This document shows, in pieces, positions 33,838 through 52,920 of a stretch of 64,000 nucleotides of DNA (the first letter of the stretch is position 1; every line of letters starts with the position of its first letter). Position numbers and translations under genes: made by a program. Under the pieces are notes generated by a model that saw only the letters and a list, made by a program, of their open reading frames with translations, made no database searches and had not been told where the DNA came from. The stretch covers positions 2,086,501 through 2,150,500 of the forward strand of contig CM067534.1 of assembly GCA_034509925.1 (NCBI GenBank), read 5' to 3'. Source of the DNA: Hirudinaria manillensis (lineage: Eukaryota; Annelida; Clitellata; Hirudinida; Hirudinidae).

Positions 33838-36800
33838 CTACAGCATTTGTGGAACTTCTTCAGCAATGGATCTATGGTTTAAAGCGGTTTTGTCCTGGAA
33901 TGACTTCAAGGTGACGTTTTCACTTTCCAGCGAAGACCCGTGAAGGAACGGCCTCGGGGCGAATGGTCTTGTATATAAACCAACGTATGTGGGTGAGGAT
34001 CTGACCGGGAAGTTTGATCTCATCAGAAGGGGATGAGATTCGTTCAAAGGTCCCAGAGCATCCCCGTTGCTCTGGTTGTTTCCAATGACGCTTTTGGTGA
34101 CAGTCGAAGGGTCCTCATTAAACCTGTTTGAGGCCAGTCTGTTGAGTGATGGAATGGTACTATATTCGTGAATGTTGTACATCTGGGCTTTTATGGGGTT
34201 TTCACAGTTAAGCCACCTGGAAAAGCTTTGTTTTCTCTGCTGTACTGCCTGCATCAGCCACTCTGGACTTGAACTCGGGGGAATATTGTTTGGGTCATCT
34301 TCAATATTAAATTAATTAGATCAATATTCTCTCAGTGAATTAAGTCGATATAATCTCAAACTAGCTATGGAAACCAAAGAAAATAATTCAGACTAAAATA
34401 TTTACTGTAATCAGAGGAGGTGTAAATAGGTCTGGTCGACTGATAAATACCGCTTTCAATTTCGCTATTCAGTCTGCAACAATCAACATATTTGACATTC
34501 TTGAATGCCGAAGATTTGTTGCTGTAGAGAGTGTCGCTGGGCAATCCAGGAGAATCACACTGGTAGTAATTTCCTGATCCAACGTTTATTCCAACATCGG
34601 ATGTGGCCGAATGGAGGCGGGATGATCGCCTATCCAATGTCATCTTGAAGAGACATAGCGTGCGAAATGATGATTAATGTTCTAAAATAATCACTTAAAT
34701 ATATTTAACATTCGTACCGGTGATGGTGCTGGGATATCGCTGTTAAGATTTGCTAAAATCAAAGCATCCGTGTTGTCCAATTCATCTGAGGCAATGAAGC
34801 TGCCCCTAATTTGGCTTCTACTTTCTGAGGACATGCATTGACTTCCCCTTTCGCTGTTTCCTCCTTCAACGTGACATGGGTTGAACTTTATGTCAGACTC
34901 GTAAGTTTCCACCGCAACTTTGTTCTTCGGGACCCCTGGACTTTTGTTAGGCCGTTTTACCGCTTTTCTCTGACTTACTGAGCAAACCACGCAGATGAGA
35001 AAAATGATGATCAAGAAGCATCCAGCCGCAACGCCTACAACAACAGCTAGGTGAGCTTCCGTCAAAATTCTGTGAACGGTTATAGGACGAGCCACAGAAT
35101 GGAGAGCAGAAAGAGAATCAACATAAACTTCCAACGTGGCAATGGTCATTTTCTGAGGAGTACCCGAATCTTTTACCATGACAACCACGTTAAAGGCGCT
35201 TATATCAGGAGGCAACGATGAATTGAGAAAGACTTCCCCCGTATTGGGATCAATTCTAAAAAGGTCAACCGGGCTGCTTTGAGAAATTGAATAAGAAAGC
35301 GTCGAATTATTGCCCAAGTCAGCATCTTTGGCCACTACCTTTGCAATGGCTTGATTGATTGGGGTATCTCTGGAGATATAAACGGTATCATTGCCAGAGA
35401 CTGGAAACTCAACAATTGGTGGATTATCGTTCTCGTCAAGAACATGGACATTGATTTCGGCCGTATCCTGGAAATGAGGGGCTTGTTCGTCTCTGACAAT
35501 GACCTGAAGGGTGTATACCTCTCTTTCTTCTCTATTCAAGGGTCGCGTAACGTTTATCATTCCTGTTTTCGAGTCGATTTTAAACAATCGATGATTCACT
35601 CCAGAATTTTGTTCGAAAAGATAAACACTTTTTGAGTCCAGATCAAGATCAACAGCAGAAACCTTTCCAAGCTCAGATTTTCCTGATTTATTTTCTATAA
35701 TGGAAAAATTATACGAGGGCTGTTTGAATCGAGGTGGCTCGTCATTCATGTCAGCTACACTGACAGTGACCGTCGCCGTGGAAGATTTTTTATGGGGTTC
35801 ACTCGCCGCATCCTTAGCGACAACTTTTAAAATATAAAAACTATTCTTTTCACGATCGAGTGGAACAGTTGTCCATAAAGCTCCACTGAAAATAATAAAA
35901 TTAAAACGTCCGGTTATCACTCTGAATAGGTAAGTGTGCAAACTTCAACCTTTTTTCGTCGATTTGAAAAACTCCTTCCGCACCCGATTGGAGAGAGTAT
36001 GTGACTTCACCGTTCGGTCCTTTGTCTGCGTCGATGGCACGTACGTAAAAGTTTTTCTGAGGAAGATGAAATTATGAAGCAATGAAATCTATGTCAAGGG
36101 ATCTCGAATCTTTCTCACCTCGAACGGCGTATTGTTTTCGAGCACTGTGATGTTGTATGTGGTGCTGCTGAACTTGGGCGAGTTATCGTTGACGTCGGTG
36201 ATGTTGACGTAATAAGAAGCATTGCTCGACAAAGGAGGTTGTCCTCCGTCGTGGCAACTTATGATCAGTAAATGACGTTCACTAGTCTCTCGGTCGAGAT
36301 GAGAATTCGTTTCGATCGTGAAGTCGTTCGTTCCTCGCCTTCTCGACATGCGATAAGGATGAGTCTTGGACTGCGTTCATAGAAAAACACTGCAAACTTA
36401 TGCGCGCATAACATATTAAGTTTAATTTTGCGAACATTATATTAATATTTAATATCATGATTATTAATCTGCGCATCTTAGTAGATCGTACAAGTATTCA
36501 TTTGAACCCGCTGTTGAATTCGTGAATCATCAAATTGTTCGAAGCAGCTACAGAACTGTTTTAAAAGATTTAATATTTATTTACAGTGGTTCAGGGGATG
36601 TCTCTAATGTCCCTAATACTCTTCCATTCTAAGATTCATAAAAAATTAGTCCTACCTTATGTCTAATATATTTACTTAATCATACTAATATCTGCTTACA
36701 ATTATCAGACTTAACCCTTAAATTATATTTTCCCCTTTGGCTCGGGTAAAAACATTGTTCCCCATCATCCCCGGTCAATTACTAGTTCCAATGTGCCAAA

Positions 36801-50939: not shown

Positions 50940-51366
50940 GAAATCATGGATTTAACCCAATACGAAGGCATCGATGTTTTCTTCATGACCGAAACCTGGC
51001 ACGACATAGGCTTAACCGCCATCGACCGCTTCAGAGCAGCCGCTCTCACCATGCCCTCGCGACCCTTGTCTGAGTTAATCTCTGCTTCCTTTCAAATCAA
51101 AGGCCATCGCCTAGCAACCCACAACGCAATTCAGGAATTCACCTTGTCCCTCTCGTCCATATGCATCCGCATTTGCCCGCCCGACCCATGGTTCGACCAC
51201 AAACTCGCAACTCAAACAGGAACTTGAGGCGCCTCGAGAAAGTAGCGCTATCGACTCAGCCGATCCCGACGTCTCGGAGCGGAGGTCACACCAGACTGCC
51301 TCAGGCGCCACATCAAAAGCAAGAGAGAATCCTACTAGAAAAGTTCCATCGGGACTGCAAGTCGGC
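50940..51366 (+). mobile_element. LINE, endonuclease-side part
   Basis: The plus strand at about 50946-51010 reads DLTQYEGIDVFFMTETWHD, the GIDV..LTETWH core of the apurinic endonuclease domain of jockey/CR1-type LINEs. After a gap, 51175-51366 gives PPDPWFDHKLAT and, in a shifted frame, EKFHRDCKSAL, the usual segment between endonuclease and reverse transcriptase. Several frameshifts and stops show it is inactive. The element continues at 52246 after a nested hAT insertion. Confidence 0.7.
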
Positions 51367-51374
51367 CTTGTGGG
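51367..51374. repeat. Left 8-bp target duplication (CTTGTGGG)
   Basis: CTTGTGGG directly precedes the hAT-type terminal repeat and recurs at 52238-52245 directly after its other end. Confidence 0.88.
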
Positions 51375-52237
51375 TAGTGAACGACCGGGGACCCCGGACC
51401 CGGATGAACCCCGGCCTTTTTTACCACCGGGGTCCCGGTCCCGGCTTTTTAACATTCCCCGGCCCCGGTCCCGCCCCGGCTTAAATTCAACCGGGTTTTA
51501 GCCGGGGGTAAACAAAAGTCGAATTTTTAGCGTTGTCAACTTAAATAAAATTTATTCATCATCCGACGAATCATAAAATATATCGTTCGGAGAGTTAAAG
51601 TCCTCAGGTACCCATTCACCAATAATATTTCATGGAACTTTCTGGAAAATCCATCAGTCATCCTAGATATCCAATCTCCTCGTAGCTTTTAATTTAAAAA
51701 AAAAACATTACTGGATTCCTCAACAAGATTCAGGTACCTCCCCTCGAAAGGAGCCCGAGAAAGTTTCCTTAACTCGATGGAGTTAAATAAACATCATCGG
51801 CTGGAACCTGGAATGATGTCCTTAAAACTACCGTTTAACTTTCATCACTATTGCGTTCACAAAACAGTAATCAATTAGTATTCAATAAGATTTGATTTTC
51901 ATGAGATTCTATCAACGATTTAATGTTTTTCTAAGTTTTCGCAACGGAGCGTGGAAGAGTTGTCGTTGTGAAATTTTTTTTTAATTACAGGTTTTACAGA
52001 ATCTCTTTGACATAATAAGCATACTTATATATTATTTGACGTTTACAACATGTTTAGAGAATAAAAGCACCGTTAGTTAACGTTATTATAGATGGCCTCC
52101 CCAACCCCGGCTTTAACCCCGGCCCCGGCTAGCCCCGGCCCGCCTGAACCCCGGTCCCGGCTGCCCCCGGCAACCGCTCCCCCTACCCCGGTCCCGGCCC
52201 CGGTCCCGGCTAAAATTGTCGCCCCGGTCGATCACTA
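51375..52237. mobile_element. Non-autonomous hAT element with GC-rich subterminal repeats
   Basis: An 863-bp element with terminal inverted repeats TAGTGAACGACCGGGG (51375-51390) and, inverted at the other end, TAGTGATCGACCGGGG (52222-52237 on the minus strand), 15 of 16 identical. It is bounded by identical 8-bp duplications CTTGTGGG, the length typical of hAT elements. Both subterminal zones (about 51380-51510 and 52097-52230) consist of many CCCCGG, GGTCCCGG and CCCCGGCT words, while the centre (about 51520-52090) is AT-rich and has no coding capacity. It is inserted in a LINE, so it is younger. Subterminal repeats are the usual transposase-binding arrangement in hAT elements; here they are unusually dense. 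Confidence 0.88.
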
Positions 52238-52245
52238 CTTGTGGG
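52238..52245. repeat. Right 8-bp target duplication (CTTGTGGG)
   Basis: Second copy of the target site, matching 51367-51374 exactly. Confidence 0.88.
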
Positions 52246-52920
52246 CTCGATTAACTCCATTATGGGTAGAGGCAAGGTTTCACAACCACTCCCTCTGTGC
52301 AGACAGCTTCCTTCACCTCCAAGATCGAGAAAGTTCGGGCCGCCTGGTCCTCCGCTCTGCTCCTGTTCCGCCGGTCACTCCACTCGCCAAGTTCCAGAGG
52401 ACAAATATAGCCGTGGTAACGAGAATGATTCATACCCTATCAATCAAGCAGTGCTCGCTCAACCCCATGCCCACCTGGCTCCTCAAGAAAATATCTATGT
52501 CCACCGCACCAATCTTCACCAACTCCATCACCGCCAGCAAATACCCAAAACCTTTCAAATCCTGTCACATCATCCCTCTACTGAAAAAAACCTAGCCTTG
52601 ACCCAGAAGACGTCAGCTCCTATTGGCCCATCTACAATCTCTCCGCTTTCTCAAAAATCTTGGAGCGCCTCGTGCTCCGCAGGGTCACAGTCAACCTGAA
52701 CCGCTACAACCTCCTTCCTGCACACCAATCTGCCTACCTTCAACACCACTCCGCCGAAACCGCCGTCCTTCGCGTCTCCTCGGACCTCTTCCAAGCGGCG
52801 GGAGCCGGCTAGGTGTCGCTGCTCGACCTCCTCGACCTTTCAGTCGCCTTCGATACTGTCGATCAAGACATCTTCCTCCAACGACTTGATATATCTTTCA
52901 GCTTCGCGGGTTGGGTCCTT
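52246..52920 (+). mobile_element. LINE, reverse-transcriptase part (truncated)
   Basis: Continuation of the LINE after the hAT insertion. INSIMGRGK at 52243-52275 is the linker, then SIKQCSLNPMPTWLLKK, SCHIIPLLKKT, and across frame changes YWPIYNLSAFSKILERLVL, LLPAHQSAYLQHHSAETAVL and LLDLSVAFDTVDQDIFLQRL, i.e. the fingers and palm of a jockey/CR1-like reverse transcriptase up to the first catalytic Asp motif. Similarity stops at about 52910, before the YxDD box, so the 3' half is missing. Frameshifts and a stop make it a pseudogene. Confidence 0.82.

What the first reader, a model, noticed from the sequence alone, without database searches (positions are those of the whole stretch)
51367..52245. 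Intact-ended non-autonomous hAT element nested in a LINE, with dense CCCCGG subterminal repeats
Directly seen: 16-bp terminal repeats with 15 matches (TAGTGAACGACCGGGG and TAGTGATCGACCGGGG), identical 8-bp flanks CTTGTGGG, and removal of the 863-bp insert plus one flank rejoins recognisable LINE sequence. The two ends are packed with CCGGGG/GGTCCCGG words in an otherwise AT-rich genome, while the centre is AT-rich and non-coding. Such GC-rich end zones could be transposase-binding arrays or local CpG islands. Known: hAT elements make 8-bp duplications and often carry subterminal repeats. Inference: recent activity, since ends and duplications are nearly perfect.
Basis: partly seen in the sequence, partly recalled or inferred. 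Interest (0 to 1): 0.7.

Follow-up and report, generated by a model that had tools for sequence, protein, structure and literature searches.

The report
Deletion-derived hAT transposon with CCCCGG ends
This is a small cut-and-paste jumping gene that lost its own enzyme gene by internal deletion and landed in an older retroelement; it belongs to a family of dozens of similar copies in this genome and is an ordinary, well-documented kind of mobile DNA.

Summary
Window 51375-52237 is an 863-bp element with 16-bp terminal inverted repeats and a perfect 8-bp duplication, inserted in a decayed LINE; 18 of 23 other LINE matches run uninterrupted through the site. It is not unique: 154 exact ends occur genome-wide (60 + 94; reversed-pattern control 0), forming 64 element-sized pairs, 53 with identical duplications. 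One nearly full-span copy with the same ends encodes a 659-aa, five-exon BED/hATC transposase matching Hermes (E 3e-13). The window element is that sequence minus about 2.3 kb, a deletion shared by 10 of 10 examined copies of its type; a 1.15-kb type and two or more others are separate deletions. The ends hold 10 + 12 YCCCGG-type words, far above shuffles, and vary partly in 6-bp steps: plausibly BED-binding arrays, though binding is inferred. Three transposase-bearing copies were found; each has visible lesions. The TIR mismatch is a family trait (50 of 64 pairs), not decay. The window copy is 1.9% from its subfamily consensus. Verdict: an ordinary Ds-like hAT derivative; a new family, not a new kind.

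The parts
51367..51374 (.). left copy of the 8-bp target site duplication, CTTGTGGG
51375..51390 (+). left terminal inverted repeat TAGTGAACGACCGGGG (the transposase 3'-side end)
51391..51509 (+). left subterminal array of YCCCGG-type hexamers (element 17-135)
51555..51614 (-). relic of the last 20 codons of the transposase frame
   Evidence: C9:2138055-2138114, 95%
51609..51612 (.). junction of the internal deletion (element 237|238; body 225|2506 of the full-span copy; 3-bp TAC overlap)
51612..52094 (-). AT-rich remainder, matching the 5' side (upstream of the start codon) of the full-span copy
52095..52221 (+). right subterminal array of YCCCGG-type hexamers (element 721-847)
52222..52237 (-). 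right terminal inverted repeat TAGTGATCGACCGGGG (the transposase 5'-side end)
52238..52245 (.). right copy of the 8-bp target site duplication, CTTGTGGG
51247..51366 (+). host LINE, left flank (decayed)
52246..52686 (+). host LINE, right flank; protein-level match to a LINE relative with two stops in the first block and one in the second
   Evidence: C9:2138733-2139104 and C9:2139079-2139186

Best explanation
A non-autonomous hAT transposon of the Ds-del / MITE-like kind. A roughly 3.1-kb element coding for a BED-finger hAT transposase suffered an internal deletion of about 2.3 kb that removed the start codon and nearly all of the coding sequence but kept both terminal inverted repeats and both hexamer arrays. 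The deleted form was copied around the genome by transposase supplied in trans, making 8-bp duplications, and one copy landed in an already ageing LINE. Shown: ends, duplications, copy number, shared deletion junction, related sequence with transposase. Inferred: that the BED fingers bind the YCCCGG arrays, that the deletion arose by failed repair after excision (3-bp overlap at the junction), and that transposase came from a full-length relative now damaged or absent in this assembly.
For: 154 exact ends, control 0. 64 pairs 300-3800 bp apart after one mispair was dropped: 53 with identical 8-bp duplications, 61 with at most one mismatch. Spans: 40 at 1050-1250 bp, 16 at 798-873, 3 at 881-960, 3 at or below 650, 1 at 725, 1 at 1381. 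Full-span copy C6:4780770-4785068: both ends present (one mismatch in the right TIR), flanks CAAAGGAC/CTAAGAAC (6 of 8), a 1147-bp copy with its own perfect GGAGTTAG duplication nested in its right end; about 3144 bp without that insert and its second duplication. Splicing at GT-AG sites gives an open 659-aa frame in five exons (4 splice combinations stay open, 653-659 aa). Pfam: hATC 5e-11 and BED 1e-5, both over cut-off; DUF659 and hAT-like RNase-H only below cut-off. PDB: Hermes 3.4e-13. Deletion junctions in 43 extracted copies: 10 at 225|2506 (window type), 29 at about 596|2611, 2 at 573|2806, 1 at 408|2829, 1 at 599|2663.
Against: No undamaged transposase source was found. The only full-span copy is split by a nested copy and has His where the two other copies have the Asp that aligns with an Asp of Hermes (in one search the alignment is offset by one there); C13 copy: 5' half only, with stops; C6:5488904 copy: 5' part only in the 3.4 kb fetched, frame disturbed, its right end not fetched but no exact end listed near it. 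Fit to the Ac-type target rule is only partial: 13 of 53 duplications match nTnnnnAn exactly. No binding or mobility test was possible.
Confidence: 0.95

Rival explanations
1. The GC-rich zones are host CpG islands or a local compositional accident, and the element is incidental.
For: The zones are CpG-rich (o/e 1.02 and 0.94 against 0.60 for the window), and C/G sites in CpG show no excess of transitions among copies, as for unmethylated DNA.
Against: The zones move with the element: all 43 extracted copies have 6-13 words in the left 150 bp and 3-13 in the right; words exceed composition-matched shuffles. The middle of the element is also CpG-rich for its composition (o/e 1.34).
Confidence: 0.02
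2. The 1.15-kb sister type is more than junk: its retained hATC (dimerisation) fragment is translated and poisons the transposase, like the KP repressor of P elements (KP recalled), and so controls the whole family including the window type.
For: hATC fragment over Pfam cut-off; 15 of 26 long copies have neither stop nor frameshifting gap in the 170-codon frame; nonsynonymous/synonymous ratio of changes from consensus 0.41; distinct changes 25 synonymous, 40 nonsynonymous against 19.1 and 47.2 expected, P 0.058 and 0.038; ORF diverges half as fast as the right half (0.0091 against 0.0176 per site).
Against: No in-frame ATG in the consensus frame; 8 of 26 copies carry stops and 5 frameshifting gaps; distinct nonsense changes 5 against 3.6 expected, P(stop<=obs) 0.86; singletons alone are not significant (P 0.15); the untranslated left end is as slow as the ORF (0.0082).
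Confidence: 0.05
3. The family is mobilised by an unrelated hAT transposase of the same genome (cross-mobilisation), the found relative being only a fossil.
For: No undamaged matching transposase was found, while other hAT-like frames exist, e.g. C9:988372-990579 (BED and hATC) and C2:4498917.
Against: No matching ends near those loci: L043 and L044 have none within 2 mismatches, and their protein identity to the family is 21-24% over most of the match. The long and short types retain the ends of the family's own transposase copy.
Confidence: 0.07

Closest known systems
Ds elements of maize (Ds-del class) derived from Ac
   Same: Internal-deletion derivatives keeping TIRs and subterminal hexamer arrays; 8-bp duplications; move on the parent's transposase (PMC3260210, passages seen).
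   Different: Hexamer is YCCCGG here against AAACGG in Ac; animal-like genome (taxon not established); parent damaged here; no mobility test.
Mar, a hAT MITE family of Drosophila
   Same: Short copies with conserved duplications, originated by internal deletion, with only relic full-length copies left (PMC3517528, passages seen).
   Different: Mar has Buster-type duplications nnnTAnnn; here only 1 of 53 has TA at the centre and the ends differ.
Hermes (Musca domestica) and its BED/subterminal-repeat system
   Same: Only hAT transposase among the PDB matches; BED finger plus hATC; repeat words mostly in one orientation along the element (CCCGG 8 left and 12 right against CCGGG 4 left and 0 right on the + strand), as Hermes repeats are antisense at the left and sense at the right end (PMC10368747, passages seen).
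   Different: Hermes words are AAGT-type; here GC-rich hexamers, often in tandem; sequence similarity is remote.
hAT-derived CGG-binding proteins (CGGBP1 and kin)
   Same: BED plus Hermes-type DNA-binding domains, often preferring CGG or CGC, with motif matches in subterminal regions of the source hATs (PMC8097297, part 1 of 3 read). CGG-containing arrays here fit that preference.
   Different: Those are mostly domesticated host proteins; binding by this transposase is untested.
BuT2 (Drosophila, Tip group)
   Same: Five-exon gene of similar size (643 aa), 8-bp duplications, about 3 kb, deletion derivatives (PMC3942097, passages seen).
   Different: No phylogeny was built here, so placement in Ac, Buster or Tip is open; the Tip target preference was not given in the passages seen.

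Membership tests
hAT superfamily | 8-bp target site duplications | tested here: met
   53 of 64 pairs identical, 61 of 64 with at most one mismatch; window copy perfect
hAT superfamily | short terminal inverted repeats shared with a transposase-bearing element | tested here: met
   16-bp TIR; full-span copy C6:4780770-4785068 has the same ends
hAT superfamily | transposase with hATC dimerisation domain, BED finger and RNase-H core | tested here: met
   hATC and BED over Pfam cut-off; RNase-H/DUF659 below cut-off but Hermes matched over residues 148-626
hAT superfamily | catalytic DDE residues in the transposase | tested here: inconclusive
   first Asp and the hATC-side Glu regions align with Hermes; second Asp is present in two copies and aligned in one but His in the full-span copy. 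Identity of the Hermes residues is recalled
Ac group of hAT (target rule nTnnnnAn, recalled) | duplication consensus nTnnnnAn | tested here: inconclusive
   T at 2 / A at 7 57% each; 13 of 53 exact against 0.106 background, P 0.003; pyrimidine-2/purine-7 in 39 of 53 against 0.253, P 2e-13; background from the window only; no phylogeny
Buster group of hAT | duplication consensus nnnTAnnn | tested here: not met
   1 of 53 against 0.074 background
Non-autonomous deletion derivative (Ds-del / MITE-like) | internal deletion of the parent with both ends kept, multiplied with one junction | tested here: met
   10 of 10 examined copies of the type share junction 225|2506
Non-autonomous deletion derivative (Ds-del / MITE-like) | mobilised in trans by the parent's transposase | not testable with these tools
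   needs an excision or transposition assay

The most novel reading that the evidence does not exclude
The family's most numerous short form keeps a piece of the transposase gene (the dimerisation domain) that is still weakly protected from change, so that deletion derivatives both parasitise and restrain their parent; together with YCCCGG arrays that grow and shrink in 6-bp steps, this would be a natural series for watching transposase and binding sites evolve against each other.
Probability: 0.05. Interest if true: 0.5.

Novelty: new member of a known kind. Interest (0 to 1): 0.2.

Why it matters
It supplies a cleanly documented hAT family with a transposase-bearing relative, several independent deletion types and dozens of dated copies in one genome, useful for annotation and as a comparative series for subterminal arrays. 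The CGG-rich arrays fit the CGG preference reported for many hAT-derived BED proteins (PMC8097297), which makes a simple binding test worthwhile. As a kind of element it is ordinary.

Tried and rejected
Repressor reading for the hATC fragment of the long type: tested by start codon, stops and substitution pattern; not supported, not fully excluded. Mosaic origin of the window copy (left end from the long type): only 9 informative left-end columns, 6 of them in one indel, so no conclusion. CpG decay of the ends: none seen. PF14372 search: no match, but nothing rang in its control genomes either, so it says nothing. Inverted-repeat searches around two other hAT-like genes (L043, L044) gave only many short AT-rich pairs, and showed no obvious ends. 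Organism: 13 large scaffolds (lengths) recall ctenophores (n = 13 in abstracts listed), but nothing here tests that; left open. Novelty in print: only the five listings were looked at; no Repbase or Dfam comparison was possible, so this family may already have a repeat-library name. Sampling: 29 of 43 extracted copies are of the long type largely because many loci came from a hATC search, so type counts should be taken from spans instead. Only 40 of 176 candidates were scored and 150 of 308; counts there are lower bounds.

Full report
What is there. The element lies at 51375-52237, between two copies of CTTGTGGG, with 16-bp TIRs. Its two ends are GC-rich and hold 22 YCCCGG-type words (10 + 12), none of which is expected in such number from composition: shuffles of each end average 0.45 and 0.77, maximum 5 and 6 in 5000. 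The window as a whole is 35.6% GC.

It is one of many. A genome search (148 Mb, 23 contigs) gave 69 matches to the 863-bp query with 40 of 176 candidates scored. Exact-end searches gave 60 sites with C at the first flanking base and 94 with A, G or T, 154 in all; the backward-read control gave 0 in both. Nearest-end pairing gave 65 pairs, one of them a mispair that I dropped; of the 64 left, 53 have identical 8-bp duplications and 61 at most one mismatch. Among the 64, 40 span 1050-1250 bp and 16 span 798-873 bp. In 50 of 64 pairs one end has A and the other T at TIR base 7; 13 have T at both and 1 has A at both.

The relative that carries the gene. hATC searches (68 matches) showed that the 1.15-kb copies carry a hATC fragment, on the minus strand in window orientation. 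A BED search (6 matches) pointed to C6:4782672 with hATC at C6:4784571. That copy runs from C6:4780770 to 4785068: its right end (one TIR mismatch, flank CAAAGGAC) is separated from its body by a nested 1147-bp copy with its own perfect GGAGTTAG duplication, and its left end has flank CTAAGAAC, 6 of 8 matching. The body codes for five blocks joined by short GT-AG introns, 659 aa in the longest open combination. BED and hATC pass the Pfam cut-offs, DUF659 and hAT-like RNase-H do not; Hermes is matched at E 3.4e-13.

Is any source intact? The first-exon protein found three family copies (the other matches were more distant: 21-54% identity). The full-span copy has an open frame but His at a place where the other two copies have Asp, and that Asp aligns with an Asp of Hermes when the C6:5488904 copy is the query. 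The C13:5461928 copy has its right end but only the 5' half of the gene, with stops. The C6:5488904 copy shows only the 5' part in the 3.4 kb fetched, with a disturbed frame; its right end lay beyond the stretch, but no exact end is listed nearby. Only the full-span copy matches the hATC query from residue 1; most of the other strong matches start at residue 11 or 12, as the shared deletion predicts. I conclude that no undamaged source is visible in this assembly; effects of the lesions on activity are inferred.

Origin of the window type. In all 10 copies of its type examined the sequence jumps from body position 225 to 2506, with a 3-bp overlap TAC at the window junction. Another 29 of the 43 extracted copies jump near 596|2611, 2 at 573|2806, 1 at 408|2829 and 1 at 599|2663. 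Thus several separate internal deletions, two of them strongly multiplied.

Age. K2P distance to the subfamily consensus: window type 0.007-0.030, median 0.019, window copy 0.019; long type 0.004-0.026, median 0.015; closest pairs 0.0085 and 0.0017. No clock for this organism was available.

The arrays. Words are mostly in one orientation along the element: CCCGG 8 left and 12 right, CCGGG 4 left and 0 right. Distinct indels that are multiples of 6: 14 of 21 in the left end, 10 of 27 in the right end, 4 of 49 in the middle (36 copies, events defined by alignment to a consensus). Against a strong constraint on the arrays: agreement with the majority base is not higher inside words than outside them in the ends (0.977 against 0.989), the right array is missing in part in several copies (3-5 words in 6 of 43), and the middle is nearly as conserved (0.973). 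So the arrays are a shared, slippage-prone feature; their role as BED-binding sites rests on the Ac and Hermes precedents (PMC3260210 and PMC10368747, passages seen) and on the CGG preference of related proteins (PMC8097297, part 1 of 3 read).

Target choice. Duplications favour pyrimidine at 2 and purine at 7 (39 of 53; window background 0.253) and match nTnnnnAn in 13 of 53 (background 0.106); TA at the centre occurs in 1 of 53. This argues against Buster and is compatible with Ac; the nTnnnnAn rule for Ac is recalled, and no tree was built.

Host. Flank matches elsewhere span the site (18 of 23), one aligned in detail. A LINE relative shows RVT_1 at E 2e-6, slightly under the Pfam cut-off, and long open frames occur in further relatives; the window LINE has stops, so the insertion sits in a decayed element.

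Verdict. A real, well-formed, deletion-derived hAT family; a new member of a known kind.

Noticed in passing
window 36769-36784 (minus strand): A lone sequence with 2 mismatches to the family's end pattern; flank GTTCCAAT has no second copy in the window and no further similarity to the element was found.
   Followed up: partly
L058 (C9:1871634-1875704): Two family ends 4071 bp apart with the same flanks GTGGAGGG: apparently an 863-type copy with about 3.2 kb of other DNA inserted near its right end.
   Followed up: partly
L053 (C1:8744213-8745593): 1381-bp composite with a second, inverted left end at its right side and non-matching flanks.
   Followed up: no
L039 4576-6276 minus strand (C3:5468602): A 566-aa open frame (bacterial-code listing, TTG start) with a hATC match, no family ends within 2 mismatches; possibly a domesticated hAT gene.
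   Followed up: no
L009 and L010 (C1:2977159 and C12:2646266): Two long-type copies on different chromosomes with different duplications, 0.17% apart: the closest pair among 26 long copies.
   Followed up: no
long-type copies, consensus 600-1150 against 1-600: The right half diverges about twice as fast as the left end and ORF (0.0176 against 0.0082 and 0.0091 per site); the short type shows no such clear step. Unexplained.
   Followed up: partly
window as a whole: CpG o/e is 0.60, yet C/G sites in CpG show no excess of transitions among family copies (0.0090 against 0.0118 in the short type, 0.0115 against 0.0098 in the long type).
   Followed up: no
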